Positions 9,415-62,642 of a stretch of DNA of 64,000 nucleotides are shown here, in pieces. This DNA is from Acanthornis magna. Taxonomy: Eukaryota > Chordata > Aves > Passeriformes > Acanthizidae. The position numbers and the translations under genes are program-made. Location of the stretch: the NCBI GenBank assembly GCA_036785705.1, contig JAWUZG010000014.1, positions 186,001-250,000 of the forward strand, read 5' to 3'. Under the pieces are notes generated by a model. The model was not told the origin of the DNA and made no database searches. It was given only the letters and a program-made list of their open reading frames with translations. The first letter of the stretch is position 1. Each line of letters opens with the position of its first letter.

Positions 9415-9416
9415 AT

Positions 9417-9918: not shown

Positions 9919-11968
<2,050 letters not shown>

Positions 11969-27297: not shown

Positions 27298-27419
27298 GCT
27301 AGAATAAAATATCTCATAATCATAAAATTATTTATCCAAAGTGAACATTGCATTAGATCACCTCAAATGACATTTCTTAAGAGTTTAAAAAGGTATAGGA
27401 CAAACTTACAGCACGGTTA

Positions 27420-27608: not shown

Positions 27609-27642
27609 AGTATTACAAATGACCAAGAAAAAAAGGGGGGAT

Positions 27643-28144: not shown

Positions 28145-30091
<1,947 letters not shown>

Positions 30092-39350: not shown

Positions 39351-39428
39351 GGAGGGGGAGCCTGGAGTACAGCACCTGCTTTAACAAATACAGAAGATTC
39401 CCAAAAATGTTTTCATAATTTTCAATTA

Positions 39429-40935: not shown

Positions 40936-41419
40936 ATAACTGGAAAACAATGGTATGGCCACTGAAGGTAATCTCCCTTTTGATTAAACAATCCCCCTTT
41001 TGATTAAACAATCCCCTCTGCTTGCAGACAGGTCCAAGGGTCAGAGCAGACCCTACCAACTTGGCAGAGGGTCCAAAAAGCAGTTTTTAGAGTTTAAAAT
41101 ATAACGCCGTATGGTAATGCAATGACTCTCATAGGCTGTATGTAAATGTAGGATTTGTAGCTTGTTCTAGATTGGTTAGTGAAAATTAGAATATTCAGCA
41201 CAGAAGATGATTTATTGTATTGTAAACGGCAACCATGGAATTATTCTATTATTATTCGATCTTCTTTCTTCTCTCTCTCACCTCTCTGAGCTGCGTCTGG
41301 CAGATCTCAGCAGGTCTCCTACCCCCACACCCTTTCACAATAAACCTCATGCTCTAAGACCAAACTCCAGAGATCTCTTGTCTCCTAACCTTCCAAAACA
41401 AAATCCACCAAATCCTACA
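40809..41419 (+). repeat. 3' LTR
   Basis: 611 bp, TGTTGGGGAGG to AAATCCTACA, preceded by the purine tract GAATGGGGGAGA. AATAAA near 41,340. One short tandem repeat of CCCTTTTGATTAAACAATC near 40,976-41,013 is unique to this LTR. Confidence 0.9.
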
Positions 41420-41544
41420 CCAAAAATTTCTGAAAAATTCCCAAAATTCCCTAAAAATTCACAACATTTTCCCAAAATTCTCAGAATTCTCCCTAAAATT
41501 CCTGGAAAAAATGACACACTCCATATAAGGCGTGGTGGACGTGG

Positions 41545-41550
41545 TTTATT
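41545..41550 (-). terminator. REC8 poly(A) signal overlapping the stop codon
   Basis: On the minus strand CAA TAA ACC contains AATAAA, and the TAA stop is its bases 3-5. A GT/T-rich downstream stretch (TGTGTCATTTTTT) lies about 30-45 bp further. The 3' untranslated region would be only about 15-30 nt. Confidence 0.7.
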
Positions 41551-41631
41551 GCCGTGGGGGGCGGAGCTTGATCCTGATTGGTCCGAAGGGGCGGAGCTGC
41601 TCCAGGTGGAGCCGGCCGGAAGCGCAGAGCT
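41546..41631 (-). CDS. REC8: REC8 last coding exon (winged-helix end)
   Basis: Acceptor TTTGACAG|AGCTCTG. Completes the codon G|AG, then L-C-A-S-G-R-L-H-L-E-Q-L-R-P-F-G-P-I and R-I-K-L-R-P-P-R-Q-stop. The L-x-Q-x-x-P-F/Y-G-x-I/L pattern is the hallmark of the kleisin C-terminus that docks on the SMC1 head. Confidence 0.9.
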
Positions 41632-44600
41632 CTGTCAAATATGGGCAAAGGGGGCAGTGCATAGCCAAATATGGACAAAGGGGCGGTGCTTGAGCCAAAT
41701 ATGGGCGGGGGCAGGGCTTGACGGGGGAGGGGCAGCGTTGCGGAAATTCCTGAAAATTCCCTCAAAATTCCCCAAAATTCCCCCAAATTTCTCAAATTTC
41801 CCACGGAATTCCCGCCAAAATTTGGGCACAAAGAAGATGGGTGTGGCTTAAGGGAGGGGCCTGGCTAAAAGTGAAAGGGGCGTGGCTTAAGGGAATGGAT
41901 TGAATTGGAGGGGCGTGGCTTAATGGAAGGGTCGTGGCTTAAGGGATTGGATTGGATTGGATTGAATGGGAGGGGCATGGCTTAAGGGATGGGCATGGCA
42001 AAAAGTGAAAGGGCCATGGCTTAAGGGAGGGGTGTGGCTAAGGGAAGGGGCGTGGCTAAAGAGATAAGGGGCGTGGCTTAAGGGAAGGAAGTGTATTGAA
42101 TAATTGGGGCGTGGCTTAATGGAATGAATAGGTCAGGAGGAAGGGGCGTGGCCTAAGCAAAGGGGCGTGGCTGAACAGAAAGCTCCAATGGAGGGGCGTG
42201 GCTTAAGTGAATGGGGGCGTGCCTTATGGGGAAAGGAGTTGAAGTAAGGGGCGTGGTTTACTGTGAAAGGGGCGTGGCTTAAGGGAAATGATTGCATTTA
42301 ATAAGGGGGTGTGGCTTAAGTGAATAAGGGATTTAGGAGAGGTGGGTTAAGGGAAAAGGGGCGTGGCTTAAGGGAATGGGCATGCCTTAATGCAAAAAGG
42401 GTGTGGCCTAAGGGGTGGGTTGTATTCAATATGATGGGCGTGGCTCAATGTGAAAGGGGCATGGCTTAAAGGAACGGTCTGTGTTTAATAACGGGCGTGG
42501 CTTAAAGGAATGGGTGGGATCTGGAGGAAGGGGCGTGGCTTAAGGCAAAGGGGTGTGGCTTAAGGGAAATGGTGTTGAGAAGATTGGGGCGTGGTTTAAG
42601 GGAAGGGGTGTGGCTTCAAGTAAAAGGGCGTGGCTTATTGGAAAGGCTTAACGGAAGGGGGCGTGGCCCAATCACAGTGTTGATCAGAAGGGGCGTGGCT
42701 TAAGAAAAAGGGGTGTGGTTTGAAGGAATGGGTGGGGTGTGAGTGGGGGGTGTGGCTTCAAAAGGGGCATGGCTTAATGGAACAAGGCAGAGTCCAAAAG
42801 GGCATGGCTTACCATTGACTATAGAAGGGGGCGTGGCCTGATGAATTTGGCTTTTAAATGAAGGGGCGTAGTTTACATGGGGAGGGGGCGTGGCTTAAGG
42901 GAACAGGCATTCTTTAAGGGAAAAGGGGTGTGGCCTAAATAATCAAACCATGTTTACGGACGGGGCATGGTTTAAGCGAAAAGAGGCGTGGCTCAAGGAA
43001 GCAAAGTGCTTATGGAAGGGGCGTAGTTTAAGGGAAAAGGGGCGTGGCTTAAGGCGTCATTTCAAGGAAGGGGTATGGTTAAAGGGATGGGCATGGCTTC
43101 AGGGGAAAGGGGCGGGGTTTGAATTAAGGGGCGTGGTTTAAAGCAGGGCAGTTAAGGAAAAGGGGCGTGGCTTCGGTGAGATGGGGCGGGCTTTGAGGCA
43201 AAGGGGCGTGGCTTAAGGGGAAAGATTGTTGATGGGAAGGGGCGTAGCTTAATACTATATTCTATTTGAATAAAGGGGTGGAGCTAAAGGTAAAGGGGCA
43301 TGGCTTAAAGGGAGGAATTGTATCTGTGGGGAAGGGGTGTGGTTTAAATGGAAGTGGGCGTGGTTTCCTAAAGGGGGTGTGGTTTAAAGAGAAAGGGGAG
43401 TGGTCTAATAAGAAGGCGTGGTTTAAAGGGAAAGGAGACTGGCTTGACAAACGGTATGACTTGAAAGGGACGTTGTTAAACAGAAAGGGCATGGCTTAAA
43501 GGGAAATGGGCGTGGTTTAATGGGAAAGGGGTGTGGTTTAAGAGAGGGGCGTGGTTTAAGAGAGGGGGCGTGGTTTAAATGGAAAAGGGCATGGCTTAAA
43601 TGGAATAGGGCGTGGCTTAGCAGAGGGAGCGTGGTTTAAAGGGAAAGGGGTGTGGTTTAACAGGGACGTGGTTTAAAGTGAAAGGGGCGTGGCTTAAGGT
43701 AAGGGGTGTGGCTTAAATGAGAATGAATGTGGTTTTAACTGAAAGGGGCGTGGTTTAACAGAAGGGGTGTGGCTTACATAAGGGGTGTGGTTTAACAAGA
43801 GGGGCACGGTTTAACAAAAGGGGTGCGGTTTAACAGAAGGGGCGTGGTCTGAGGCCAAGGGGGCGTGGCCAAGGACTGACCGAGGCAGAGGGCGAAGGCT
43901 CGAGCCGCTCGGGGACGGGGACAGTCCGGACCCAAGATGGCACCGAGCTCCGCCCCTTCCGGGAGCTGGGCGTGGTCAAGGATCAGCCTGGGGGGGAGGG
44001 GAAAGTTCCAGAAAGTTTGGCGGGAAATTCGCAGAAATTCCGAGGAAAATTGCCAAAAATTCGGCAGAAAATTCGAGAAAATTCGGTGGAAAATCACTGA
44101 TAATTCACGAAAATGTGGCAGAAAATTCGTGAGAGTTCAGTGGAAAAATTCCCGAGAATTCTGCAGAAAATTCCCCAAAAATCTGTGAAAAAAATGCTGA
44201 AAAATCAGTAAAAAAATTGCCAAAAATTGGGCAAAAAAATTCCCAAAAATTCGGTGAAAAAATCCCGAAAATTTGGCAGAAAATTCTATGGAAAATTCCG
44301 GAAAATTTGGTGGATAATTTGCGAAAATTAGGCGGAAAATTCCTGAAAATTTGGCAGAAAATTTGCGAAAATTCAGCGGAAAATTGCCGACAATTTGGCG
44401 GAAAATTTGTTGTAGAAAATCTAGAAAATTCAGCAAAAAATTAACAATTTTTTTTTTTAATTGGTGGAAAATTCAGCGGAAAATTTGCAAAAATGTGACA
44501 GAAAATTCGTGAAAATTCAGTGAAAAATTTAAAAAATTTAAGAAGGAAAAAAAATCAGCAAAAAAAAAAAAAAAATCCATGGGAAAAAAAAAATCGGCAA

Positions 44601-47600
44601 AACATTCCCAAAATTTCAGCGAAAAAAATCCAAAAATTCAGCAAAAAAATAAAAAAATTCTGCAAAAATTCAAAAGACATTCGGCAAAAAAAGAAAACAG
44701 AAGAAACAATAAAAGTTTCCTAAAAATTCAGTAAAAAATACAGAAAATTAAACAAATACAAGCCCCAAAAAATTCATTTTAAAAACCCCAGGAAATCAAA
44801 TAAAAATTCCCTGAATATTCAGAAAAGTATCCAGAAAATTCTATTCTAAAAAATGGTGAAAACTCACCAAAAAATGCCAAAAAATTCAGTGAAAAAAAAT
44901 TCCATGAAAATCCATGGGACATTTGGCAAAAAACCCGCGGAAAATCCAATAAAAATTTCCAGAAAATTCTGAAAAAAATATAAAAAATGGACGAATAAAA
45001 GTCCCAAGAATTCATTTCTAAAAACTCTGGAAATGCCAATAAAAATTTCCTGAGAATTCAGAAAAAAATGTGGAAAATTTAACAGAAAAAGTCCTGAAAA
45101 TTCACTGAAAAAATCCCAAAAATTCAGCACAAATTTAGTGGGAAATCACAAGGAATTTCCATAAAATTTTCAAGAAAACCACTGTGAAATTCAGGAAAGT
45201 TTACATAAAAATTCACAAAAAATTCCCCAAACTTTTGCGGAAAATCTGCATCGAATTTTGCAAAAATTCACCAAAAAGCAGCAAAAAATTTCAAAAAAAT
45301 TCAGGGAAAAATTTCTGCTCAAAAATGCCACAAAAATCCCAAATTCTGTCCCCAAAATCTCCCCAATTTCCCCAAAATCCTTGAAACTTTCCCAAAGGTC
45401 AAAAAAAAAAAAAAATTTACCAAAATCCTGAAAACTTTGCCCAAATTCCCCAATTTTGGGCCAAATTTCTAAAATGTCTTCCAAAACACCTAAAATTTTC
45501 CCAAATTTCCCCAGAAATAGTAGAACTCCACCAAAATACCCCAAAATTTTAAAAAACTGAAAAATTAATGAAATTCTGAAAAATTGGCCAAAATTCCCAA
45601 AATTTCCCCCCAAATTCCTAAAATTCCCTCCAAATTCTTAAAATTTCCCCCAAACTCTTAAAACTCCCTTCAAATTCCCAATTTTTCCCCAAAATTCTTA
45701 AAATTTCCCCCAGATTCCCAAATTTTCCCAAATTCTTAAAATTGTCTCCCAATTTTCCACATTTTCCCATAAGATTTTTATACCTTTGGTATTTCCAAAA
45801 TTTCCCCCAAATTCTAAAAATTTTCCCCCAAACTTCCAAAACTTCCTCCAAATTCCTGAAATTTCCCGCCAAAATTTTTAGAATTCCCCCCAAATTCCCC
45901 CAACATTTCCCCAAATGTTCAGCCCCACCTGCTGAGGTCGATGGGCGGGGCCTCGGGCAGCTCCGGGAGCACCTCGGGGGGCGGGGCCGGAAGGGGAGGA
46001 ACGCTGGGGGCAGGATCACATGATGTCATCGAGCCCCCCACCCCAATCCCGCAGTGATTTCCAGACGTTCCCGCCCACTCCCGGTCAAACCCGACGACTT
46101 CCGGGAGATCCTGCTGCCACTTCCGGTCAATTCCCCAACGCTCCTAAGCACTTCCGGTCATTTCCGGAGCACTTCCGCTCGGCCCCAGCCCATCCCGGTC
46201 AAGCCCCGCCCACTTCCGGTCAACCCCCGGGCAAAATTCCTGCCCTTTGTCCACTTCCGGTCCTCCCCGACAACTTCCGGTCTGAATTCTGTCACTTCCT
46301 GTCACTTTCCCGTCGGGAATTTCACTTCCGGTGAGGTTTACCCTCACTTTCGGGTGTCATTAACCACTTCCGGTCTAAGCCCCGCCCACCTCGGCTCCTC
46401 CTCCAGCGGCTCCAGGGACACCTCTGGGGGGGAGGGGCAAAATCAGCACCAAAATTCTCCAAAAATTTCCCAAAATTTGCTCCCAAATTCCCCAAAATTT
46501 TCACCCGAATTTGCACTTTTGTGATTTTCCCAAAACTCAGTTTTCTCCCCAAAATTTCCCCCAAATTTTCACCTGAATTCACATTTTTGGGATTTTCCCA
46601 AAATTCGTTGTTTTCCCCGCAAAAAGTTTCCCAAAATTTCCACAAATTTCCCCAAAATTTCACCCAAATTCCCAAAATTTACACCCAAATCCACCTTTTT
46701 CTGGTTTTCCCAAAATTCCTGATTTTCTCCCCAAAATTCCCCAAATTTTCCCCAAAATTTCCCATTTTTTTTTCCCAAATTAACTTTTTATGATTTTCCC
46801 AAAACTCTCAATTTTTTCCCAAAAATGTCCCCAAAATTTTCCCGGAATTTTCACCCAAATTCCCCAAATTATCAACCGAATTCACTTTTTTGTGGTTTTC
46901 CCAAAATTCCTGATTTTCTCCCCAAATTTTCCCCAAAATTCCACCCAAATTCCCAAAATTTTCACCCAAATTCAGTTTTTGTGATTTTCCAAAACTCACA
47001 ATTTTCTCCCCCAAAATTTACCATAAAATTCCCCCAAATTTTCCCAGTTTCCCCCCAAAGTTTCCCTAAATTTTTCCCCAAAGTCTCCCAAAATTCCAAC
47101 TTTTTCATTTTTCCCCAAATTTCTCCAAATTCTCCCCAAAATTCCCATTTTCCCCAATTTCCATTTTTCTTAGAAATTTTCCCCAAAATTCCCCAAAATT
47201 CTCCAAATCCCCCAAAATCCCCAAATATTTTCATTTTACCCCATTTTCCCAATTTTTCCTCAACATTCCACAAATTCCCCAAAACTTCACCAAATTCCCT
47301 CAAAATTCCCCAAATTTTCCAATTTCCCCCTATTTTTCCCCTAATTTTTCCCTAAAATTCCCCAAACATCTCCCAATTTTTCCCCAAAATTCCCCCAAAT
47401 TTTTCCCTAAATTCCCAAACTTTTCCAAATTATCCCAAATTTCCCCAAATTCCCCCAAAATTTCCCTAAACTCTCCCCCAAAATCTCCCGAAATTCCCCA
47501 AATTTTTCCCGATTCCACTTTTCCCAAGCTCCCAAAAACTTCCTCAAATTTTTCCCAAATTCCCCAAAATACCCCAATTTTTTCCCCCAATTCCCCTAAA

Positions 47601-50600
47601 TTTCCCCCCCGATCTCCCAAAATTTCTCCAATTTCATTTTCCCCCAAATTTCCTCAAATTCTCCCCAAATTCCCAATTCCCCAACCTCTCCCAATTTGCC
47701 CAAAGCCTCACCCGAGGGCAGACTCGGCTCCAGCACCGCCCGCGGCACCTGCGAGAGAGAGAATGGGAATGGAATGGAATGGAATGGGAATGGAATGGAA
47801 TGGGAATGGGAATGGAATGGGAATGGAATGGAATGGGAATGGAATGGAATGGGAATGGAATGGAATGGAATGGGAATGGAATGGGAATGGAATGGGAATG
47901 GAATGGAATGGAACGGAATGGGAATGGAATGGAATGGAATGGAATGGAATGGAATGGGAATGGAATGGGAATGGAATGGGAATGGAATGGAATGGGAATG
48001 GAATGGAATGGAATGGGAATGGAATGGAATGGGAATGGAATGGAATGGAATGGGAATGGGAATGGAATGGAATGGGAATGGAATGGAATGGGAATGGGAA
48101 TGGAATGGGAATGGAATGGGAATGGAATGGAATGGAATGGAATGGGAATGGAATGGGAATGGAATGGGAATGGAATGGAATGGGAATGGGAATGGGAATG
48201 GAATGGAATGGAATGGGAATGGAATGGGAATGGAATGGAATGGGAATGGAATGGGAATGGAATGGGAATGGAATAGAATGGAATGGAATGGAATGGAATG
48301 GGAATGGAATGGGAATGGAATGGAATGGAATGGGAATGGAATGGGAATGGAATGGAATAGAATGGAATGGAATGGAATGGAATGGGAATGGAATGGAATG
48401 GGAATGGAATGGAATAGAATGGAATGGAATGGAATGGAATGGAATGGGAATGGAATGGGAATGGAATGGGAATGGAATGGGAATGGAATGGGAATGGAAT
48501 GGAATGGGAATGGAATGGAATGGAATGGAATGGAATGGAATGGGAATGGAATGGAATGGGAATGGGAATGGGAATGGGAATGGAATGGAATGGGAATGGG
48601 AATGGGAATGGAATGGAATGGGAATGGGAATGGGAATGGAATGGAATGGGATGGAATGGGAATGGAATGGAATGGAATGGGAATGGGAATGGAATGGAAT
48701 GGAATGGGAATGGAATGGAATGGAATGGAATGGAATGGAATGGGAATGGGAATGGAATGGAATGGAATGGGAATGGGAATGGAATGGAATGGAATGGGAA
48801 TGGGAATGGGAATGGAATGGAATGGAATGGGAATAGAATGGGAATGGGAAATTGGGGATTGGGAATTTGGGGAATTTTGGAGAAAATCTAGGGGAAAATT
48901 GGGGGAAATTCAGGAAAATTTTGGGGAGTTTTGGGGGAATTTTGGGAAAACTTGGGGCAATTTTGGGAAATCTGGGGAAAAATTGGGAAAAATTAGAAAC
49001 TTCAAGGGGAATTTGAAAGAATCTCCGAGAATTTGGGGAAATTTGGGGAATTTTCGGGGAATTTTGGGAAAATTTGAGGGAAATTGGGGAATTTTGGGGA
49101 AATTTGAGGAAATTAGGATAAAATTGGGGGGAAATTGGCAGAATTTTGGGAAAGTTGGGGAAAAATTTGGGAAATTTGGGAAAAAATTGGGAACTTGAAA
49201 GGGGAATTGGAGGGAATTTTGGAAAATTTTGGCAATTTCGCAGAAATGAATGGAAATTTGGGGGATTTGGGGGGAAATTCAGAAAAATCGGGAATTTTTG
49301 GGGAATTTGGGCAAGTTCAGGGAATTTCAGGGAAAATTCAGGAAAAATTTGGGAATTTTGGGGGAATTTTGGGGGAATCTGGGGAAAATTTGGGGAATTT
49401 TGGGGAACTCAGGCAGAATTTTGGGATTTTGGGATTGAAGATTTTGGGGATTTGGGGATTTTAGTGATTGATTTGATTATTTTAGGGCCAATTTGGGGAC
49501 TTTTGGGGACAAATTTTGGATTTTTGGCTCCGAATTTTGGGATTTTTGGGATTTTCCGTTCGGCATTTCGTATTTCCGGTTCAGAATTTTGCAGTTTTTG
49601 GGCATTTTTAAGTCAGAATTTGTTATTTTTGGGTCTGAACTTTTTATTTCTGAAATAAGAAATTTCCAATTTTTTGTATTTTCAGTTCCGAATTTGTCAT
49701 TTCAGTTCAGAATTTCGGGATTTGGGGGATTTTGGGGTCGAAACTTTGCCATTTTTGGGTCAGAATTTGGGATTTTTTTGTTCGGAATTTCTGATTTTCA
49801 GCTCAGAATTTTGGGTTTTTTGGAACATTTGAGTCAAAATTGGTGATTTTTGGGTCTGAATTTCTGGATTTTTTTTATTTTTGCGATTTTTTGATATTTT
49901 CGGGTCAGAATTTCAGATTTTGGAGATTTTTAGGTCAAAAATTTTTGGGCATTTTTTTCGGATTTTTTGGGCTTTTTTTTTATAGTTTTCAGGGACTTTT
50001 TTCAGGATGTTTTTTATCTTTTAGGGTTTTTTTGGGGTATTTTTGGGGATTTTTGGGATTTTACCTCCAGCTCGCTGGGCAGTTCGGTGGGCGGGGCCAA
50101 GGGCGGGGCTGGCGGTGGGCGTGGCCTAAAGCTCCTCCCCCAGAGCTCCCGAAGCTCCTCGGGGATCAACTCTGGGGCAGAGAAACCCAAACTGACTTTT
50201 CTCACCCAAAATCCCCAAAATTTCCCATTTTTCACCCAAACTTCCCTTTTGTCACCCCAAAATTGCTGAAATCGCCCTTTTTCACCCAAAAATCCCCAAA
50301 TTCCCGAATTTTCACCCCAAAAATTCCCAAGGTTGCCCTTTTTTCCCACCCAGAATTGCCCCAAATTTCCCTTTTTCCACCCCAAATTTCCCAATTTTTA
50401 CCGCAAATTCCCCAAAACTCCCAAAATTTCCCTTTTTCCACCCAAAATTTCCTAATTTTTACCCAAAATTCTTAAAAATTCCCCAAAATTTCCCATTTTC
50501 CACGCAAAATTTCCGTTTTTTCCACCCCAAAATTACCAAGTTTCACCCAAAAATTCTCTTTTCTCACCTCAAAAATTCCCAATTTTCCATTTTCCACCCA

Positions 50601-53600: not shown

Positions 53601-56600
53601 TCACTTTTCCCAAAAATTTTTCCCTTTTTCCCCACAAATTTCCCGAATTTTCCAAGAAAATTTCCCATTCTTCCCCACAAAAGGACACATCTTAAAAAAA
53701 ATTCCTCTTTTTACCCAAAATTTTTGCGTTTCTTCCCAAAACATTCGCATCATTTCCCAAAAATTACACACTTTTCCCACAAAATTAAGCATTTTTTCCT
53801 AAATTTCCCATTTTTTAAAAAAATTGCCTTTTTCCCCTAAAAAATTCACATTTTTTCCCAAAATATTTGTTTTCCCACAAAATTCCACTTTTTTCACCAA
53901 AATTTCCTATTTTCCCCAAGAAATTCCCACTTTTACAAAAAAATTCCACTTTTTTTACAAAAATTTGCAGTTTTTCCCTGAATTTCCCTTTTTTCCCCAA
54001 AATTCCCACTTTCCCACAAAATACCCAAATTTTCCTAAAATTTTAACATTTTTTCCCACAAAATTACTTTTTTGCAATTTTTTTGCAATTTTCAAAAAAA
54101 AGATGCATTTTTCCCCAAAATTATACATTTTTCTCATTAAATCCCCAAGTTTTCCCAAAAATTCCACTTTTTTCCAAAAAAATTCACGTTTTTCCCACAA
54201 AATTCCCAATTTTCTCCTGAAATTTCTGATTTTCCCTAAAAATTCCCTTTTTTCCAAATAATTCCCAACTTTTCCAATAAAATTCCCAATTTTTCCCCCA
54301 AGATTTCCCATTTTCAAACCCAATTTTTCCCGAATTTTCCCATTTGGACCAAAAATTCCTGAATTTTCCCCCAAAATTTCCAAAATTTTCTCCAAAATTT
54401 CACATTTTCCCCCCAAAATTCCAAACTTTCCCCAAAAATTTCCCACTTCTGACCCAAAATCCACAAATTTTCCCCCAAAATTCCAGACTTTTCCCCCAAA
54501 ATTTCCCAAATTTCCCCCAAGATTTTCCATTTTTCCCAAATATTTGCCACTTTTGACCCAAAATTACCAATTTTTTCCCTAAATTCCCACATTTTCTCAG
54601 AATTTTGTCCCTTTTGACCCAAATTTCCTCAATTTTCTCCCAAATTTCCCAAATTTTTCCCCAATTTTTTCCAAATTTCCCCAATTCTTCCCGAATTTCT
54701 AATTTTCCCCAAATTTTTCCCAGATTACCCCCAAATTTTCCCCAATTTTCCTGAAATTTTTCCCACATTTTCTCCAAATTTTCCCAAACTTTTCCATATT
54801 TTCCCCACATTTTTCCCAATCTTTACCAACATTTTCTCAAATTTTCCCCAAATTTTCCCAATTTTTTCCTGAATTTTCCCTGAATTTTCACAATTTTCAC
54901 GATTTTCACCATAATTTCCTAAATTTTTCCCAATTTTCCCCAAATTTTTCCCAATTTCTCCCAAAATTTTCCCAAATTTTCCCAAATTTTCCCAATTTTC
55001 TCCCATTTTTCTCCATTTCTCCCAGATTCTCTCCCAAAATTTTCTCAATTTTTTCCCAATTTTTCCCCAAATTTCTGCAGATTTTCTCACGGGGGGGGAG
55101 GGGCAGCTCAGGCTCTGGTGCCAACTCTGGGGGGGGGAGGGGAGAGAACAGAAATGAGACAAAATTAATCCAAAATTGACCAAAATTGACAAAAAATTAA
55201 TCAAACATTGACTCAAAATTAACCCAAAAATTAGCCCAAAAATTACCAAAAATTAGTCAAAATGACCCAAAAGGAACAAAAGATTGACCCAAAAATGACC
55301 CAAAATTGATTGAAAATTGGTAAAAAATTCACCCAAAATTGGTAAAAAATTCACCCAAAATTGACCAAAAATTGATTTAAGATTCACCAAAAAATTGCCC
55401 AAAATTGGTCAAAAATTGATCCAAAATTAACCCAAAAATGACCCCAAAATTTGCCAAAAATTGAGCAAAAATGCTCCAAATTGCATCAAAAATGACTCTA
55501 AATGATCCAAAATTCCCAACATTCCCAAAAATTCCCAAAATGGCCCAAAATTCCCAAATTTTCCCGAATTTTTCCAAATTTCTCACCCTCGGGCTCGGCC
55601 TCGAGCAGCAGCTGCAGCTCCCGCGGGGTCACCTCGGGCAGCTCCACCTGTGCCAAAATCCCCAAAATTCAGCCCAAAATTCACCCCAAATTAAAGAAAA
55701 ATTAATGAAATTCTACAATATTGAGAATTCCCCAAAAAATTTTAAAAAAAAAAAAATCCCCCAAAAATTGCAAAAATTTGGCCAAAATTCGTCCCAAAGT
55801 GACCAAAATTGCACCAAAATCCCCAAAATTCGGCCCAAAATTTACCCCAAATCGCAGAAAATGAAATTTTCTGAAAATGAAAATTTAAAAAAAAAAAAAA
55901 AATCGGCAAAAACTTCTGAAAATGTGGCCAAAATTTGTCCCAAATGGTGAAAATTTGTCCCAAAGTAACCAAAATCGGCCAAAATTTTTGCAAAATTCAC
56001 CCCAAAATTTCACCTAAAGTGCAGAAAATTAACAAAATTTAATTGACAAAAAACACTGAAATTTGGCAAAAATGTTCAAAAATCTGGAGAAAACTCGTGC
56101 AAATTTGGCCAAAATTAATCCCAAAATCATCAAAATTGCACCAAAATCTGCAAAATTTACCTCAAAATTTAGTCCAAGTTGCAGAGAATTCCCAAAATGT
56201 TCCCAAAATGAGAATTCAAAAAAAAAAATCCCACAAAAAATCCACAAAAAATCCACAAAATCGCCAAAATTTGGCCAAAATTCAACCCAAAATGGCGAAA
56301 ATTTGTCCCAAAGTGACCAAAATTGCAGCAAAATCCATAAAATTTAGCCCAAAATTTCACCCAAATCCCAAAAAAATTAACGAACTTTTCTGAAAATGAG
56401 AATTCCCGAAAACATTTAAAACAATAAAAAATCCCCCAAAATTGTGAAAATTCGGCCAAAATTTATCTCAGGATCATCAAAATTGCACCAAAATCCCCAA
56501 AACTCAGCCCAAAACTTCTCAGATTTTTTCCATTTTTCCTGAATTTCCAAATTTCCCAAATTTCCCAAATTTCTCAATTCCTGAAATTTCCCAAATTCCC

Positions 56601-59600
56601 CAATTTTCCCAAATTCTCAATTTTCCCCAAAATTCCCAAATTTCCCCAAATTCTCCAATTTACACAAATTTTCCCAAATTCCCCAAATTCCAAAATTTCC
56701 CAAATCCTCATATTTCCCCCAATTCCCAAAAATCCAAATTTCACAAAATCTCACATTTCCCAAGTCCCCAAATTTCCCGAATTCCTAAATTCTCCAGAAT
56801 TCCCCAAATCCCCAAATTTTCCCAAAATTCCAAAATCTGCACATTTTCCCCAAATCCCCAAATTTCCCCAAATTCCTGATTTTCCCAATTTTCCCCAAAT
56901 TCCCCAATTTTTCTCAAACTTTCCCCAAATTTTCCCCAAACTTTCCCCCAAATTCCCAAATTTCCCAATTCTGAAATTTCCCAAATTCCCAAAATTTCCC
57001 CAAATTTTCCCAAATCCGATTTCCCCAAATCTGCAAATTTCCCCAAATTCCTAAAGTCCCAAATTCCCAAAGTCCCAAAATTCCAAATTTCCCAATTCCC
57101 CAAATTTTCCCCAATTTTTCCCAATTTTTTCCGAAATTCCCCCAATTCCCCAAACCCCAGATTTCCCCAAATCCCAATTTCTCAAATCTGCAAATTCCCC
57201 AAATTTTCCCCAATTTTTCCATTTTTTCCCCAAAATTCTCCCAAATGATTTTCCCCAATTTTTCCCAATTTCCCAAATTCCTCAAATCCCCAAATTTTTC
57301 CAAATTTTTCCCAAAGTTCTCCCAAGTTTTCCTGATTTTTCCCAATATCCCAAATTTCTCAAATCCCCCAATTCCCGATTTTTCCCAAATTCCCAATTTT
57401 TCCCAAATTCCCCAATTCCCCAAATTCCCAATTTTTCCCAAATTCCTCATTTCCCCCCAAATTCCCGATTTTGCCCAAATTCCCGATTTCCCAAATTCCC
57501 GATTTCTCAAATTCCCGATTTTCCCCAATTCCTGATTTTCCCAAATTCCCCAATTTCCCCAAATTCCCGATTTCCCCAAATTCCCGATTTCCCCAATTCC
57601 CAATTTTCCCAAATTCCCGATTTTCCCAAATTCCCGATTTTCCCAAATTCACCTCCTCAGGCTCGGGAGGGGGCGGGGCCTCCTCAGCCTCTCTCAGTCG
57701 GAGCCGCTCCGCCTCTGCCACTGCAACCAGCGCGGACCAGTGCGGACCAGTACGGACCAGTACGGACCAGTATGGACCAGTACAGACCCGTTCAGAACAG
57801 TATGGACCAGTTTGGACCAGTGCATACCAGTGCAGACCGGTACGGACCAGTTCAGACCAGTTTGGACCAACAGAGATCAATAGGAATCAATAGAAATCAA
57901 TAGAAATCAATAGGGATCAACAGAAATCAATGGAAAGGAATGAAAGTCAATGGAAACCAATAGTAATCAATGGAATCAATGGAAATCATTAAGAATCAAT
58001 AGAGATCAATAAGAATCAATAGAAATTAGTAGTAATTAATAGAAACCAATAAAAATTAATAACAATCAATAGCAACCAATGGAAATCAATGCAAATTAAT
58101 AGAAACCAATAGCAATCAACAGCAATCAATAGAAACCAATAGAAATCAATGGAAATCAATAGAAGTCAATGCAAATCAATAGAAACCAATGGAAAGCAAC
58201 AGGAATCAATAGGAACCAATAGGAACCAATGGAAACCAATTGGAATCAATGGAAATCAATGGAAATCAACAGGAATCAATACAAATAAATAGAAACCAAT
58301 AGAAATCAATAGGAATCAATAGGAACCAATAGGAATCAATGGAAAACAATGGAAATCTACAGAAATCAATAGAAATCAATAGAAATTTGTAGGAATTAGT
58401 AGTAACTAATAGAAATTAATAGAAATCAATGGAAACCAATGGGAATCAATAGAAATCAATGGAAATTAATATAAATCAGTAGAGATCAACAGAAACCATT
58501 AGAAATCAATAGAAATCAATAGGAATCCCTAGGAATCAATAGGAATCAATAGAAACCAATAGAAACCAATAGAAATTAATAGAAATCAATGGAAACCAAT
58601 GGAAATCAATAGGAATCAATAGAAATCAATAAGAATGAATAAAAATCAATATGAATTAATAGAAATCAATGGGAATCAATAGGAACCAATAGGAATCAAT
58701 GGAAATTAATGCAAACCAATAGAAATCAATAAAAATTAATAGAAATTAACAGAAACCAATAGGAAATCAATAGAAATCAATGTAAATCAATAGGAATCAA
58801 TAGCAATCAATGGGAATCAATGGAAATCAGTACAAATTAATAGAAACCAATAGCAATCGATAGCAATTAACAGAAACCAATAGAAATCAATGGAAATCAA
58901 TGGAAATCAATAGAAACCAATGGAAACCAATAGAGATCAATAGGAATCAATAGAAACCAATAGAAACCAATACCAATCAATACAAACCAATGGAAATCAA
59001 TAGAAATCCATAGAAATCAATGGAAACCAATAGAAATCAATGGGAGTCAATAGAAACCAATAGAAATTAATGGAAATCAATCGGAACCAATAAAAATTAA
59101 TAGAAATCAATGGAAATCAATGAAAATCAATAGGAACCAATAGGAATCAACAGACATCAATAGAAACCAATGGAGGTCAATGGAAATCAATAGGGATCAA
59201 TAGAAATCAATGGAAACCAATAAAAACCAATGGAAGGCAATAGCAACCAACAGGAACCAATAGGAATCAATAGAAATTAATGGAAATGAACAGAAACCAA
59301 TGGAAACCAATAGGAGCCAAAACAAATCAATGGAAATCAATAGAGATCACTAGAAATCAATGGAAACCAATAGAAATTAATAAGAAGCAATAAAAATCAA
59401 TAGGAATCAATACAAATCAATAGAAACCAATAGCAATCATTAGGAATTAATAGAAATCAATAGAAACCAATAGGAACCAATAGGAACCAATAGGAAACAA
59501 TGGAAATCAAAAAGAATCAATAAAAATCAATAGAAATCAATAGAAATCAATACAAATCAATGCAAGTCAAGGGAAATCAATACAAATTAATAGAAACCAA

Positions 59601-62600
59601 TAGCAATCGATAGCAATCAATAGAAACCAATAGAAATCAATGGAAATCAATGTAAGTCAATACAAACCAATGGAAACCAATAGGAATCAATAGAAACTGA
59701 TAGAAACCAGTATCAATCAATACAAACCAATGGAAATCAATAGGAATCCATAGAAATCAACGGAAACCAATGTGAGTCAATAGAAACCAATAGAAATCAA
59801 TAGGAACCAATAGAGATCAATACAAATCAATAGAAATCAAGAGCAATCAATGGAAACCAATGGGAATCAATGGAACCAATGGGAATCAACAGGAATGAAT
59901 GGAAACTGATAGGGATCAATAGAAACCAACAGGAACCAATAGCGATCAATAGCGATCAATATGGATCAATAGGGATCAATAGCGATCAACTGGGATCAAT
60001 GGGGATCAATAGGGATCAATAGGAATCAATAGCAATCAATAGGGATCAATAACAACCAATAGGGATCAATAGTGATCAATAGGGATCAATAGCGATCAAT
60101 AGCTCAGACCTGGGGGGGCCTCGATGGCCTCGAGCAGCGGCAGAAGTTCCTCCACCTGAGGGAATTGGGGAAATGAGAGATTGGGGTTGGGATTGGGGAA
60201 TTGGGGGAATTTGGGGAAAATTTGGGGAATTCTGGGGAAAAAAGGGAAAAGTTTTGGGGAATTTGGGGAAATTTTGGGGAATTTGGGGAAAATTTGGGGA
60301 AAATTGGGAAATTTCAGGGAAAATAGGGGAAATCTGGGGAAAATTGGGGGAAAACGGGAAAAAATGGGGAAAAAATGGGGGAAAAGAGAGGGAAAAATGG
60401 GGGGAAAATGGGGAAAAATTGGGGGGAAAATGGGGAAAATTGGGGGGAAAATGGGGAAAAAAGGCAAAGAAATGGGGGAAAGAAAGGGGAAAAATGGGGA
60501 AAAAATGGGGGAAAAAACATGGAAAAAATGAGGAAAACGGGGGAAAAAGAGAACAAAATAGGGAAAAATTGGCCAAAAAATGGCAAAAAAATGGAGAAAG
60601 TGGTGGAAAAATTGGGGGAAGATGGAGAAAATTTGGCAAAACATTGGGGAAAATTGGGGGGAAAAATCGAGAAAAAATGTGGAAAAATGGAAAAAAAGTG
60701 AAGAAAATTGGGGAAAAATGGGGAAAAAACTGAGAAAATTGGGTAAAAAACAAGAAAAAGGGGGAAATGAAGAAAGTTGAATTTTGGGGTAAATTTTGGG
60801 GATTTTGGGTTAAATTCGGGGATAAATTTTGGATCCATTTCAGGTCAGTGTGGGTACCTGGGGCAGGGCCGGGGCCATGAGGCCGAAGAAAGGATCTGGA
60901 GCTGATTGGGGAAAGGTTTGGGGAAAAAATGGGGAAATGGAGAAAATGTAAATTTGGGGTGAATTTTGGGTGAATTTGGGTACCTGGGGCAGGGCCGGGG
61001 CCATGAGGCCGAAGAAAGGATCCGGAGCCGATTCCAACTCCTCCATCAGAGCGCGAGAGTCAGGCACGAGCTGAGCCCTGCCGTGGGAACACGAGATCGG
61101 GGAGTGCGGGAATTGGGGCACTTTGGGGAAAAGGGGAAAACCTGGGGACATTTTGGGGCATTTGGGGAATTTGGGGGGAGAAGGGAAAAATTTGGGAGAA
61201 TTTGGGCCATTTTTGAATCCATTTCGGTCCATTTTTCATCAATTTTGGGTCCATTTCAGGCTAATTTTGGGTCAATTTTTTATCAATTTTGATGAATTTT
61301 GAGTCAATTTTTCATCAATTTTTCATTAGTTTTGTCTCAATTTTGGGTCAATTCTCAATCAATTTTGGTCATTTTTTGGTCGATTTTTGGCAAATTTTGG
61401 GACAATTTTTCATCAACTTTGGCTGAATTTTGGATCAATTTTTGGGTCAGTTTTTGGCCAATTTTGAGTCAATTTCTAGTGAATTTTGGGACAATTTTTC
61501 ATCAATTGTTCATCAATTTTGGGTCCATTTTGGGTCAATTTTAGGTCAATTTCAGGCTAATTTTGGGTCACGTTTTCATCAATTTTGGGTCAATTTTCCA
61601 TCAATTTTGGGTCAATTTTTCATCAATTTTTCATCAATTTTGGGTCAGGTTTCAGCAAATTTCGAGTCAATTCTTGACAAATTTTGGGTCAATTTTCGGC
61701 CAATTTTGGATCAATTTTTGGTGAATTTTGGGTCAATTTTCGATCAATTTTGGGTCAATTTTTCATCAGTTTCCCATCAATTTTCAATCAATTTTCACTC
61801 AATTTTTGGTCAATTTTCGATCCATTTTTGATCAATTTTGATCAAATTTTCATCTATTTTTGGTCCATTTTTTGTCAATTTTTGAGTCAATTTTTGGCTA
61901 ACTTTTGGCCAATTTTGGGGTGAATTTTTGGGTTAAATTTGGTGAAATTTTGGGTGAAATTCAGGGGTTTCTGGCACCTGCGGGGGGGGCTGATGTCGAT
62001 GGCCGCCAGGGGGCGCCAAGCGCGGTGCAGCCGCTCCAGGATCATTGAGGTTTCCTCTGCAAAAAATACCCAAAAACGGCCCCAAAATGCCCCAAAAATG
62101 CCAAAAAATCTCCCCTTAAAAACGGCCACAAAATGCCACAAAAATTCCCGAAAATCCACCCCCAAAATACCCCCAAAATGGCTCCAAAAATACCCAAAAA
62201 TCTCCCCCAAAAACGGCCCCAAAATGCCCCAAAAATACAAAAAAACCCCCTAAAATCGGCCCCAAAAATACCCGAAATTCTCCCCCAAAAATGGCTCCAA
62301 AATGCCCCCCACCACAACCCCGCCCCTCCTCCCCCACCAGCCCCACCACCTCATTAGCATAACCCCGCCCAGCCACCCCTCATTGCCTTAACCCACCCCT
62401 CCCCATAAACCCCGCCCCTCATTACCATAACCCCGCCCCTCCTCCCCCACCAGCCCCGCCACCTCATTAGCATAGCCCCGCCCCTACCGAGCAGGAGGTG
62501 GCACTGTCTGACGTAAACTCTGGCGAGCCCGAGCTGCAGCAGCGCCCCCAAATACAGAGAGCAGCGCGGGGGCGGGGCCCCGGCCGGGGGGGGCGGCACC

Positions 62601-62642
62601 TCCCAACCGCCGCGGCCAATCACGAACAGCGTCACGGCGGCG
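41546..62642 (-). CDS. REC8: REC8 meiotic cohesin alpha-kleisin, 15 exons, 5' end outside the window
   Basis: REC8 replaces RAD21 in the cohesin ring during meiosis, bridging SMC3 (N-terminal domain) and SMC1 (C-terminal winged helix); separase cuts it. Exons in transcript order: 62488-62642, 61978-62056, 60984-61077, 60110-60155, 57653-57720, 55587-55647, 55091-55126, 53371-53531, 51939-51999, 50065-50171, 47712-47748, 46390-46423, 45929-46003, 43881-43987, 41546-41631. All have GT/AG borders and every junction keeps frame, giving about 401 codons and a stop. Landmarks: RCSLYLGALLQLGLARVYV, MILERLHRAW, SAPDPFFGLM, RWDPQTQIGAERIRERLR, LIPEELRELW, PRAARAFALCL, HLEQLRPFGPIRIK. These align in order with mammalian REC8, not RAD21 or RAD21L. 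The exons for the first 50-60 residues lie beyond 64,000. The gene is compact in coding sequence but spread over 21 kb of satellite introns. Confidence 0.92.
41632..43880 (+). repeat. GGGGCGTGGCTTAAGGGAA satellite in REC8 intron
   Basis: From about 41,840 to 43,870 a loose array of units of roughly 20-35 bp repeats the core GGGGCGTGGCTTAA, with variants GTGTGGTTTAA and GCATGGCTTAA. Spacers are A/G-rich (GGGAAAGG). It fills the last intron. The first 200 bp hold three related copies of CAAATATGGGC-AAAGGGG. Confidence 0.95.
43881..43987 (-). CDS. REC8: REC8 exon (winged-helix start)
   Basis: Acceptor CCCCCCAG|GCTGATC, donor CTCG|GTCAGT. Reads L-I-L-D-H-A-Q-L-P-E-G-A-E-L-G-A then ends C-P-R-P-R-A-A-R-A-F-A-L-C-L. 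The A-A-R-x-F helix matches the kleisin C-terminal domain. 107 bp, phase 2 to phase 1. Confidence 0.9.
43988..45928 (+). repeat. AAAATTCGGCAG-type AT-rich repeats in REC8 intron
   Basis: From 44,000 to about 45,300 a degenerate repeat of roughly 11 and 21-22 bp units (GAAAATTCGGCAGAAAATTC, later AAAAAATTCAGT) fills the intron. From 45,300 it passes into CCCAAATTTCC-type repeats. The plus strand is A-rich and poor in C at first and becomes C-rich later. Confidence 0.9.
45929..46003 (-). CDS. REC8: REC8 exon (acidic/proline-rich linker)
   Basis: Acceptor GCCCCCAG|CGTTCC, donor AGCAG|GTGGGG. Reads V-P-P-L-P-A-P-P-P-E-V-L-P-E-L-P-E-A-P-P then I-D-L-S. 75 bp, phase 2 to 2. The P-E-L-P-E pattern matches the unstructured linker before the C-terminal domain. 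Confidence 0.85.
46004..46389 (+). repeat. CACTTCCGGTCA repeats in REC8 intron
   Basis: Between about 46,090 and 46,375 the core ACTTCCGG recurs some six to eight times at irregular spacing of 20-60 bp. The core is the reverse complement of CCGGAAGT, an ETS-family binding consensus. Confidence 0.85.
46390..46423 (-). CDS. REC8: REC8 micro-exon
   Basis: 34 bp. Acceptor CCCCCCAG|AGGTGTCC, donor CCGAG|GTGGGC. Reads E-V-S-L-E-P-L-E-E-E-P. Phase 1 to 2, matching both neighbours. The V-S-L-E-x-x-L-E motif is typical of the REC8 linker. Confidence 0.85.
46424..47711 (+). repeat. CCCAAAATTTCCC repeats in REC8 intron
   Basis: Nearly G-free on the plus strand. Degenerate units of about 11-12 bp (CCCCAAAATTTC), with a longer period of about 130-150 bp visible as repeated TTTTGTGATTTTCCCAAAACTC and TGATTTTCTCCCCAAA blocks between 46,510 and 47,010. 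No exon. Confidence 0.9.
47712..47748 (-). CDS. REC8: REC8 micro-exon
   Basis: 37 bp. Acceptor CTCTCTCGCAG|GTGCCG, donor CTCGG|GTGAGG. Reads V-P-R-A-V-L-E-P-S-L-P-S. Phase 0 to 1. V-P-R-x-x-L-E-P-S-x-P is a REC8 linker motif. The acceptor lies right beside the GGAAT satellite, so the satellite's minus strand supplies the pyrimidine-rich upstream sequence. Confidence 0.88.
47761..48848 (+). repeat. (GGAAT)n / (GGGAAT)n satellite
   Basis: About 1.09 kb of pure GGAAT pentamers mixed irregularly with GGGAAT hexamers, and only a few variants (GGAAC, AGAAT). It resembles human satellite III in unit sequence. No unit contains a stop in the forward frames, which creates long false open frames. Confidence 0.98.
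48849..50064 (+). repeat. GGGGAATTTTGGG repeats in REC8 intron
   Basis: G/T/A repeats nearly free of C, the strand opposite in composition to the intron at 46,424-47,711. Units of about 11-16 bp. From 49,500 the unit changes to TTCNGAATTTNGGATTTTTGGG. No exon. Confidence 0.9.
50065..50171 (-). CDS. REC8: REC8 exon (linker)
   Basis: Acceptor CTGCCCCAG|AGTTGATC, donor CTGGAG|GTAAAA. Reads E-L-I-P-E-E-L-R-E-L-W-G-R-S-F-R and ends T-E-L-P-S-E-L-E. 107 bp, phase 1 to 0. The P-E-E-L-x-x-L-W motif matches REC8. Confidence 0.9.
50172..51938 (-). repeat. REC8 intron with five duplicated exon-end/donor fragments
   Basis: C-rich repeats to 50,655, then TTTGGGATTTGGGG repeats. Embedded at about 50,656-50,687, 51,240-51,275, 51,542-51,577, 51,685-51,716 and 51,822-51,857 are copies of the end of the next exon plus its donor: minus-strand CTCCTGAGCAGCCCTGGGAA followed by CG|GTGAGAGAG, with small changes. 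Each copy keeps GT but has no acceptor in front. Confidence 0.88.
51939..51999 (-). CDS. REC8: REC8 exon
   Basis: Acceptor TCTCTTTAG|GGCCCTG, donor GAACG|GTGAGAGAG. Reads G-P-A-E-A-P-Q-R-R-T-A-A-E-L-L-S-S-P-G-N. 61 bp, phase 0 to 1. Source of the five downstream exon-end copies. Confidence 0.88.
52000..53370 (+). repeat. GGATTTTTGGGGTAAAACCTCAGAAATTT repeats in REC8 intron
   Basis: Degenerate tandem array with a period of roughly 45-50 bp built from GGGATTTTTGGGGTAAAA and CCTCAGAAATTT blocks. G/T-rich on the plus strand. No exon. Confidence 0.9.
53371..53531 (-). CDS. REC8: REC8 exon (central W-D-x-x-T-Q motif)
   Basis: Largest exon here, 161 bp. Acceptor TTTCCCCAG|CCCCCG, donor CCAGG|GTGAGT. 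A proline/arginine run, then R-W-D-P-Q-T-Q-I-G-A-E-R-I-R-E-R-L-R-D and P-W-W-E-C-S-P-R. W-D-x-x-T-Q-I and the following W-x-C are conserved REC8 landmarks. E-R-I-R fits the E-x-x-R core cut by separase; that function is inference. Confidence 0.92.
53532..55090 (+). repeat. CCCAAAATTTCC / TTTTTCCC repeats in REC8 intron
   Basis: C/A/T-rich on the plus strand and almost G-free. Units of about 11-14 bp (TTTTCCCCAAAATTC). No exon. Confidence 0.9.
55091..55126 (-). CDS. REC8: REC8 micro-exon
   Basis: 36 bp. Acceptor CCCCCAG|AGTTGGC, donor CCCC|GTGAGA. Reads E-L-A-P-E-P-E-L-P-L-P-P. Phase 1 to 1, which joins its neighbours exactly. Confidence 0.8.
55127..55586 (+). repeat. AAAATTGACCCAAAA repeats in REC8 intron
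   Basis: Short array of AAAATTGACC and AAAATTAACCC units (10-12 bp), ending with CCCAAAATTCCC. No exon. Confidence 0.88.
55587..55647 (-). CDS. REC8: REC8 exon
   Basis: Acceptor TTGGCACAG|GTGGAG, donor CCGAGG|GTGAGA. Reads V-E-L-P-E-V-T-P-R-E-L-Q-L-L-L-E-A-E-P-E. 61 bp, phase 0 to 1. E-L-P-E-V-x-x-R-E-L-x-L-L is a conserved REC8 stretch. Confidence 0.9.
55648..57652 (+). repeat. CCAAAATTTGG and CCCAAATTCC repeats in REC8 intron
   Basis: First part (to 56,500) has a period of roughly 230-250 bp of GGCCAAAATT...GACCAAAATTGCACCAAAATCC blocks. The second part is short CCCAAATTCCCGATTTTCC units. No exon. Confidence 0.88.
57653..57720 (-). CDS. REC8: REC8 exon
   Basis: Acceptor GGTTGCAG|TGGCAG, donor GAGGAG|GTGAAT. 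Reads V-A-E-A-E-R-L-R-L-R-E-A-E-E-A then P-P-P-P-E-P-E-E. 68 bp, phase 1 to 0. Charged linker. Confidence 0.85.
57721..60109 (+). repeat. Decamer satellites in REC8 intron: CGGACCAGTA then CAATAGAAAT
   Basis: Positions 57,731-57,870 hold about a dozen GGACCAGTACG-type decamers. From about 57,880 to 60,100 the unit is AATCAATAGA / AACCAATGGA, about 10 bp, over 200 copies with frequent single changes. Near 59,930-60,100 it becomes GGGATCAATA. No exon. Confidence 0.95.
60110..60155 (-). CDS. REC8: REC8 micro-exon
   Basis: 46 bp. Acceptor TTCCCTCAG|GTGGAGG, donor CCCCAG|GTCTGAG. Reads V-E-E-L-L-P-L-L-E-A-I-E-A-P-P. Phase 0 to 1. L-L-E-A-x-I/P fits REC8. Confidence 0.85.
60156..60857 (+). repeat. 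GGGGAAAAATGGGG repeats in REC8 intron
   Basis: G/A-rich array (GGGAAAATTGGGG, GGGGAAAAATGG) of about 10-12 bp units, with almost no C. No exon. Confidence 0.9.
60858..60909 (-). pseudogene. Partial duplicate of the REC8 APDPFFG exon
   Basis: Minus strand repeats the last 50 or so bases of the exon at 60,984-61,077 plus its donor: S-A-P-D-P-F-F-G-L-M-A-P-A-L-P-Q followed by GTACCC. The front half is missing. The only nearby AG (CCAATCAG) would put a spliced product out of frame, but unspliced reading from the upstream exon stays open and in frame through it. Confidence 0.85.
60984..61077 (-). CDS. REC8: REC8 exon (A-P-D-P-F-F-G motif)
   Basis: Acceptor CCACGGCAG|GGCTCAG, donor CCCCAG|GTACCC. 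Reads R-A-Q-L-V-P-D-S-R-A-L-M-E-E-L-E then S-A-P-D-P-F-F-G-L-M-A-P-A-L-P-Q. 94 bp, phase 2 to 0. The D-A/S-x-D-P-F-F-G motif is diagnostic of REC8. Confidence 0.93.
61078..61977 (+). repeat. CAATTTTGGGTCAATTTTT repeats in REC8 intron
   Basis: From 61,200 a degenerate array of TTTTGGGTCAATTTTTCATC units, near-period about 10-12 and 20-24 bp. G/T-rich on the plus strand. No exon. Confidence 0.9.
61978..62056 (-). CDS. REC8: REC8 exon (kleisin N-terminal helix)
   Basis: Acceptor TTTTTTGCAG|AGGAAACC, donor CCGCAG|GTGCCAG. Reads E-E-T-S-M-I-L-E-R-L-H-R-A-W-R-P then L-A-A-I-D-I-S-P-P-R. 79 bp, phase 1 to 2. I-L-E-R-L-H-R-A is a signature of the REC8 N-terminal region that contacts SMC3. Confidence 0.93.
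62057..62487 (+). repeat. CCCAAAAATGCCCC repeats and CCCCGCCCCTCCTCC-rich intron
   Basis: Units of about 10-20 bp (CCCCAAAATGCC, AAAATACCCAAAA), then two copies of a CCCCGCCCCTCCTCCCCCAC-CAGCCCCACCACCTCATTAGCATA block at 62,322-62,475. No exon. Confidence 0.85.
62488..62642 (-). CDS. REC8: REC8 exon (kleisin N-terminal domain)
   Basis: Acceptor GCCCCGCCCAG|CGCCGCC, donor GCTCG|GTAGGG. Reads A-V-T-L-F-V-I-G-R-G-G-W-E-V-P-P-P-P then R-C-S-L-Y-L-G-A-L-L-Q-L-G-L-A-R-V-Y-V-R and Q-C-H-L-L-L. 155 bp, start phase 2, end phase 1. The L-Y-L-x-x-x-L-Q-x-G-x-x-R-V-Y motif is the conserved core of the Rad21/Rec8 N-terminal domain. A short GC-rich acceptor tract makes the exon start slightly less sure than the rest. 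Confidence 0.9.

What the first reader, a model, noticed from the sequence alone, without database searches (positions are those of the whole stretch)
41546..62642. A complete chain of REC8 exons hidden in satellite DNA
Fifteen short exons on the minus strand, none visible as a long open frame, connect with consistent splice phases and give REC8-type motifs in the right order from the N-terminal domain to the winged helix. REC8 is a core meiotic gene. Bird genes of this GC-rich, repeat-interrupted kind are known to drop out of short-read assemblies, so this locus is likely unannotated or fragmentary in many birds. About 1.2 kb of coding sequence is spread over 21 kb of simple repeats. Exon boundaries and phases are seen directly; gene identity follows from kleisin family knowledge.
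Basis: partly seen in the sequence, partly recalled or inferred. Interest (0 to 1): 0.92.

Follow-up and report, generated by a model that had tools for sequence, protein, structure and literature searches.

The report
Bird REC8 gene with repeat-filled introns
This stretch of what looks like bird DNA holds most of REC8, a gene for the protein that keeps chromosomes joined while eggs and sperm form, cut into 15 tiny coding pieces by long runs of repeats; the gene was once thought missing from birds but has already been reported in several, so this is a good new example, not a new kind of gene.

Summary
Fifteen minus-strand exons (62642 to 41546; 1207 nt in 21.1 kb) have AG/GT splice borders and give one open frame of 401 residues. 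The spliced protein passes the Pfam cut-offs for Rad21_Rec8_N and Rad21_Rec8. "Complete" is wrong: the N-terminal domain is matched only from profile position 50, and no N-terminal exon is found in the rest of the window. The "satellite DNA" is tandem repeat, largely private to each intron: 82% cover in introns, 5% in exons, 4% in bases 1-41000. Intron 3 holds a 48-of-50 copy of the end of exon 3; intron 9 holds five copies of the end of exon 9, each with its splice donor. This matches the published "sequence stuttering" of bird dot-chromosome genes. REC8 has been reported from zebra finch chromosome 36, Bengalese finch and chicken. Known kind, well observed.

The parts
62488..62642 (-). exon 1 of the part in the window (N-terminal domain, ...SLYLGALLQLGLARVYVRQCHLLL); 5' border least certain
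   Evidence: tblastn 45.4 bits from 62599; Pfam Rad21_Rec8_N from residue 26
61978..62056 (-). exon 2 (...ILERLHRA..., end of N-terminal domain)
   Evidence: tblastn chain
60984..61077 (-). exon 3 (...APDPFFGLM...)
   Evidence: tblastn 38.5 bits
60858..60907 (-). copy of the last 50 nt of exon 3 plus its donor, inside intron 3 (exon stuttering); used as an exon from the AG at 60902 it would be 44 nt and shift the frame
   Evidence: blastn 82.4 bits, at most 35.6 in 30 shuffled intron sets; 2 mismatches in 50
60110..60155 (-). exon 4
   Evidence: splice borders and phase
57653..57720 (-). exon 5
   Evidence: splice borders and phase
55587..55647 (-). exon 6 (VELPEVTPRELQLLLEAEPE)
   Evidence: tblastn chain
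55091..55126 (-). exon 7
   Evidence: splice borders and phase
53371..53531 (-). exon 8 (...RWDPQTQIGAERIRERLRDPWWECSPR)
   Evidence: tblastn 47.8 bits, the best hit
51939..51999 (-). exon 9
   Evidence: splice borders and phase
50659..51852 (-). five copies of the end of exon 9 with its splice donor inside intron 9, starting at 51852, 51713, 51573, 51269 and 50685 (27 nt each, 1-4 mismatches)
   Evidence: no other place on either strand of the window at up to 6 mismatches; best of 200 shuffles of intron 9 has 9 mismatches
50065..50171 (-). exon 10 (...IPEELRELW..., ends ELE)
   Evidence: splice borders and phase
47712..47748 (-). exon 11, 37 nt (VPRAVLEPSLPS); with exon 10 it writes ELEVPR, a match to the published separase cleavage pattern
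   Evidence: (top candidate by GC of the frame- and phase-fitting AG..GT pieces listed); tblastn chain; pattern
46390..46423 (-). exon 12
   Evidence: splice borders and phase
45929..46003 (-). exon 13
   Evidence: tblastn chain
43881..43987 (-). exon 14 (start of the C-terminal winged helix)
   Evidence: Pfam Rad21_Rec8 residues 358-398
41546..41631 (-). exon 15 (end of winged helix, stop codon TAA)
   Evidence: tblastn chain
41545..41550 (-). AATAAA overlapping the stop codon, likely poly(A) signal (inferred)
   Evidence: the only AATAAA or ATTAAA in 41560-41300 of the minus strand
47761..48847 (-). (GAATG)n array of intron 10 (unit as read on the plus strand), an example of an intron-private repeat
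57868..60102 (-). 10-bp array (CAATAGAAAT as read on the plus strand) filling intron 4

Best explanation
This is the REC8 gene of a bird, without its first exon or exons, which lie beyond base 64000. It codes for the meiotic kleisin: the N-terminal domain and the C-terminal winged helix would close the cohesin ring on SMC3 and SMC1B, the middle part would bind STAG3, and separase would cut it to release sister chromatids. Shown here: the exon chain, the open frame, both kleisin domains and likeness to REC8 and not RAD21. Inferred from family knowledge: partners, meiotic expression, cutting. The introns were filled by local, intron-by-intron tandem expansion (sequence stuttering) that spared the exons but sometimes copied their ends with the splice donor. 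Shown: cover, largely private motifs, copied exon ends. Inferred: that it is still active and how (slippage or gene conversion).
For: 15 exons, AG/GT borders, 0 internal stops. Pfam Rad21_Rec8_N 24.3 bits (cut-off 23.1) and Rad21_Rec8 27.8 bits (cut-off 22.7), in order. Unguided tblastn chain 248.2 bits against at most 86.2 in 15 shuffles; RAD21 chain 80.4. REC8 109.0 bits by phmmer, RAD21 none. Exons 66-80% GC in introns mostly 31-41% GC, with 82% tandem-repeat cover in introns, 5% in exons, 4% in 1-41000. Copied ends of exons 3 and 9 far above shuffles. Avian_gp85 match in a flanking endogenous retrovirus supports a bird. Published bird REC8 and dot-chromosome stuttering.
Against: Start codon and first part of the N-terminal domain are not in the window. 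7 of 15 exons have no similarity support of their own in the unguided chain. No transcript, no second bird sequence, no conservation test. The PDB search did not name REC8: its best hit was a low-complexity match to an unrelated protein (Pre-protein VI, 3.8e-5), and S. pombe Rad21 came at E 0.87. Motif privacy is loose: variants of AATTTTGGG recur in several introns at 2-3 per kb. The best of the exon 9 copies scores 36.5 bits by exon sequence alone, below the 42.1 that Hron et al. used as threshold. Neighbours such as IPO4 or IRF9 were not identified.
Confidence: 0.93

Rival explanations
1. A decayed REC8 copy (pseudogene), the working gene being elsewhere.
For: Repeat-swollen introns; the 5' end is not seen; zinc-finger and retrovirus-rich duplicated DNA lies next door.
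Against: No internal stop in 401 codons and intact AG/GT at all 14 introns; introns kept, so not a processed copy; a poly(A) signal sits at the stop.
Confidence: 0.04
2. The chain belongs to another kleisin (RAD21 or RAD21L).
For: The two Pfam domains are shared by the whole family.
Against: RAD21 probe at chance level: chain 80.4 bits against REC8 248.2; no phmmer line to RAD21. RAD21L not tested.
Confidence: 0.01
3. A paralogue, for instance on the germline-restricted chromosome of a songbird, and not the standard REC8.
For: Nothing direct; the chromosome is not known here.
Confidence: 0.03
4. Exons chosen by eye out of low-complexity DNA, no gene.
For: Proline-rich probes give many spurious hits in this window.
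Against: The unguided chain is about three times the best of 15 shuffles and in gene order; two independent Pfam models pass.
Confidence: 0.005

Closest known systems
REC8 of zebra finch (chromosome 36), Bengalese finch and chicken, as reported by Kim et al. 2022, PMC9516821
   Same: Bird REC8 hidden from older assemblies by GC-rich and repetitive sequence; the paper names it with IPO4 as falsely lost (passages seen).
   Different: Species of the window unknown; the passages seen give no exon map or intron content of REC8, which are given here.
Sequence stuttering and exon stuttering of chicken dot-chromosome genes, Hron et al. 2026, PMC12954441 (for example PHF8)
   Same: Introns full of local imperfect tandem repeats that stop at exon borders; ends of exons with splice donors copied into the neighbouring intron (sections 7 and 9, first part of each).
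   Different: REC8 is not named in their main text; their list of 115 genes is in a supplement that could not be read. Between-individual length variation, their third mark, is untested here. They describe euchromatin free of interspersed repeats, while here retrovirus-derived DNA lies about 140 bp from the stop codon.
Human REC8 (recalled sequence, from no call)
   Same: Order of motifs along the protein and full-length C-terminal likeness.
   Different: Window part is 401 residues; several middle stretches of the recalled human protein have no counterpart (alignment).

Membership tests
REC8 (meiotic alpha-kleisin) | N-terminal Rad21_Rec8_N domain | tested here: met
   24.3 bits, cut-off 23.1, but profile 50-99 of 110 only; the first part is outside the window
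REC8 (meiotic alpha-kleisin) | C-terminal winged helix, Rad21_Rec8 | tested here: met
   27.8 bits, cut-off 22.7, profile 13-53 of 55
REC8 (meiotic alpha-kleisin) | Closer to REC8 than to RAD21 | tested here: met
   109.0 bits against no phmmer match; chain 248.2 against 80.4; probes recalled; RAD21L not tried
REC8 (meiotic alpha-kleisin) | Complete coding frame with start codon | tested here: not met
   No N-terminal exon in 62643-64000 or elsewhere above 20.0 bits; expected upstream of the window. A limit of the window, not of the gene
REC8 (meiotic alpha-kleisin) | Separase site | tested here: inconclusive
   ELEVPR aligns with recalled human EIEVPR and fits the pattern given in PMC12609080, but 32% of shuffles of the protein hold such a pattern and EAERLR fits too
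REC8 (meiotic alpha-kleisin) | Germ-line expression and place in meiotic cohesin | not testable with these tools
   no transcripts or protein data
REC8 (meiotic alpha-kleisin) | Neighbours RNF31/IRF9 and IPO4 | not tested
   the 41 kb on the 3' side show zinc-finger and retrovirus matches in the 9 ORFs scanned; no dedicated search for IPO4 or IRF9 was made
Stuttering introns of bird dot-chromosome genes | Introns dominated by local tandem repeats that spare exons | tested here: met
   median intron cover 84%, total 82%; exons 5%
Stuttering introns of bird dot-chromosome genes | Copies of exon ends in the neighbouring intron | tested here: met
   exon 3 and exon 9 copies
Stuttering introns of bird dot-chromosome genes | Intron length variation between individuals | not testable with these tools
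   one sequence only
Stuttering introns of bird dot-chromosome genes | Location on a dot chromosome | not testable with these tools
   assembly could not be searched

The most novel reading that the evidence does not exclude
A core gene of meiotic cohesion and recombination sits inside recombination-unstable, still growing introns; the copied splice donors (five in intron 9, one in intron 3) and length-variable introns change how much proper REC8 mRNA is made, so the instability of the locus feeds back on meiosis and varies between individual birds.
Probability: 0.08. Interest if true: 0.75.

Novelty: new member of a known kind. Interest (0 to 1): 0.33.

Why it matters
REC8 is needed for meiosis (family knowledge), and its reported loss in birds was a puzzle that long reads removed. 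This locus gives an exon map that a gene finder can use in birds, where 34-161-nt exons in 0.4-2.4-kb repeat introns defeat ordinary prediction. It is also a clear case of exon-end copying, with splice donors kept, in a meiotic gene, which makes it a good place to ask whether such copies disturb splicing and whether the introns vary between individuals.

Tried and rejected
Plain tblastn of the recalled probes gave a long list of proline-rich and low-complexity hits; replaced by the collinear chain with shuffles. PDB sequence search: a low-complexity match to an unrelated protein and a weak Rad21 match; not used. G-quadruplex idea: 47 motifs in the gene against a mean of 30.7 and a maximum of 44 in 100 block shuffles, but the flank is also above its shuffles (46 against a maximum of 27), so not special to the gene. 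Separase pattern: too common in shuffled protein to count as proof. CR1 3' tail as a bird mark: no match. tRNA scan: none, with a bacterial-code tool. Clean LTR ends for the neighbouring retrovirus: the repeat ends read do not show an obvious TG...CA; left open. A structure prediction was not asked for, since a spliced protein is not read letter for letter from the window. An earlier wording of mine, 'phases agree', was weakened, because joining exons makes phases agree by construction; the test is the open frame that coincides with the similarity hits. A first regular-expression count of exon 9 copies (3 besides the original) was replaced by a full Hamming scan (5).
Full report
WHAT WAS CHECKED. 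The finding claims fifteen REC8 exons on the minus strand between 62642 and 41546. Reading the minus strand in three frames and joining the pieces gives exons of 155, 79, 94, 46, 68, 61, 36, 161, 61, 107, 37, 34, 75, 107 and 86 nt. All 14 introns begin with GT and end with AG, exon 1 has an AG acceptor, and the joined 1207 nt hold one frame of 401 residues with no internal stop. The 37-nt exon 11 was found by listing AG..GT pieces with the phases needed between exons 10 and 12; the VPRAVLEPS pieces head that list when it is sorted by GC.

IS IT MORE THAN CHANCE. I picked exons knowing what REC8 looks like, so an unguided test was needed. The plus strand reached 109.3 and 15 dinucleotide-shuffled windows 46.9 to 86.2. 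The best single hit had 47.8 bits against at most 30.0 in the shuffles. A recalled RAD21 gave 80.4 on the minus strand and 62.0 on the plus strand. Pfam, which owes nothing to my memory, finds Rad21_Rec8_N (24.3 bits, cut-off 23.1) and Rad21_Rec8 (27.8 bits, cut-off 22.7) in that order. The spliced protein matches the recalled REC8 with 109.0 bits by phmmer and RAD21 not at all; by blastp RAD21 reaches 20.8 bits, E 0.11.

WHAT IS MISSING. The chain is not complete. Exon 1 starts in mid-codon, Pfam's N-terminal model is matched from position 50 only, and the first 56 residues of the recalled REC8 find nothing above 14.6 bits between 62643 and 64000 and nothing above 20.0 bits anywhere in the window. 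The start exon or exons must lie beyond the window. The first 25 residues of exon 1 have no Pfam support, so its acceptor is the least certain border. At the other end the stop codon overlaps an AATAAA at 41550-41545.

THE REPEATS. 'Satellite DNA' is loosely right. Tandem Repeats Finder covers 82% of the intron bases (median intron 84%, range 21-99%), 5% of the exon bases and 4% of bases 1-41000. Introns largely have their own motif: intron 4 a 10-bp unit, intron 10 (GAATG)n, intron 12 ACCGGAAGT, intron 14 CCACGCCCC; the commonest 9-mer of introns 4, 10, 12 and 14 occurs in no other intron, while variants of AATTTTGGG recur in several. Strand asymmetry is strong, with GC skew up to 0.8 in either direction. 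Exons are 66-80% GC, introns 31-60%. The arrays also carry copies of exon ends: the last 50 nt of exon 3 recur in intron 3 with 2 mismatches (60907-60858; 82.4 bits against at most 35.6 in 30 shuffled intron sets), and the last 19 nt of exon 9 with the first 8 of its donor recur five times in intron 9 (1-4 mismatches), nowhere else in the window on either strand at up to 6 mismatches, while the best of 200 shuffles of intron 9 has 9. All five keep the GTGAGAGA donor. By exon sequence alone the best exon 9 copy scores 36.5 bits, only just above the shuffles.

WHAT IS KNOWN. Kim et al. 2022 (PMC9516821; passages seen) write that IPO4 and REC8 were reported as part of a deleted block in birds, citing Lovell et al., and that they found both on the newly assembled chromosome 36 of the zebra finch and in the Bengalese finch, consistent with long-read chicken data. 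The main text of Lovell et al. 2014 (PMC4290089) does not hold the word REC8; the claim may rest on its tables or supplements. Ungrova-group work on IRF9 (PMC12220609, passages) places IRF9 between RNF31 and REC8 in many birds. Hron et al. 2026 (PMC12954441; abstract and outline, passages, first part of sections 7 and 9) describe stuttering introns of dot-chromosome genes in chicken, with partial exon copies including splice sites, name gene conversion or slippage-like processes as possible causes, and say that they saw such expansions in some other birds. The word REC8 is not in their main text. Six paper searches showed no exon map of a bird REC8 or statement that REC8 stutters; most subscription papers are not in that library.

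HOW IT WORKS. Best reading: a working bird REC8. From family knowledge it closes the meiotic cohesin ring between SMC3 and SMC1B, binds STAG3, and is cut by separase. ELEVPR, across exons 10 and 11, aligns with EIEVPR of the recalled human protein and fits the separase pattern given in PMC12609080 (passages), but a third of shuffled proteins hold such a pattern, so this is a pointer only. None of these functional steps was shown here. The introns fit local expansion that selection keeps out of the exons; whether it is still going on cannot be told from one sequence.

SURROUNDINGS. On the 3' side the window changes abruptly: 4% repeat cover, a 10.7-kb duplication at 96.5% identity with C2H2 zinc fingers, and pieces of endogenous retroviruses (Avian_gp85, TLV_coat, RNase H, Gag_p24 with an integrase domain). 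A 600-bp repeat of that retrovirus-rich stretch ends at 41407, about 140 bp from the REC8 stop. Hron et al. describe chicken dot-chromosome euchromatin as free of interspersed repeats, so this is either a sharp boundary or a misjoin.

VERDICT. Observation confirmed, apart from the word complete; interpretation supported; the gene and the intron phenomenon are both in print, so novelty is low and interest moderate.

Noticed in passing
window 51852-50659 (minus strand): Five copies of the end of exon 9 with an intact GTGAGAGA donor lie in intron 9: ready-made decoy splice sites.
   Followed up: partly
window 46004-46389 (intron 12, minus strand): Eight CCGGAAGT words (ETS-like, motif name recalled) in 386 bp and none elsewhere in the window; unlike its neighbours this intron is 60% GC with only 21% repeat cover.
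   Followed up: no
window 41632-43880 (intron 14): CCACGCCCC occurs 27 times in this 2.2-kb intron and in no other REC8 intron; it resembles KLF/SP-type boxes (recalled).
   Followed up: no
window 41407-41546: About 140 bp separate the end of a retrovirus-associated repeat (36585-37179 against 40809-41407, 88.5%) from the REC8 stop; repeat cover jumps from 4% to about 80% across this place. Sharp chromatin boundary or assembly misjoin.
   Followed up: partly
window 5774-16416 and 24023-34647: Segmental duplication, 10.7 kb at 96.5% identity, in zinc-finger and retrovirus-rich DNA.
   Followed up: partly
window 20747-21358 (-), 11489-11965 (+), 29711-30088 (+): C2H2 zinc-finger arrays; the minus-strand one has at least seven fingers.
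   Followed up: partly
window 39351-40232 (+): One open frame joins a Gag_p24 domain to an integrase DNA-binding domain, so the stretch between them is missing from this endogenous retrovirus remnant. Described only.
   Followed up: no
window 41550-41545 (-): The REC8 stop codon lies inside the AATAAA, so the 3' untranslated part would be only a few tens of bases (length inferred).
   Followed up: no
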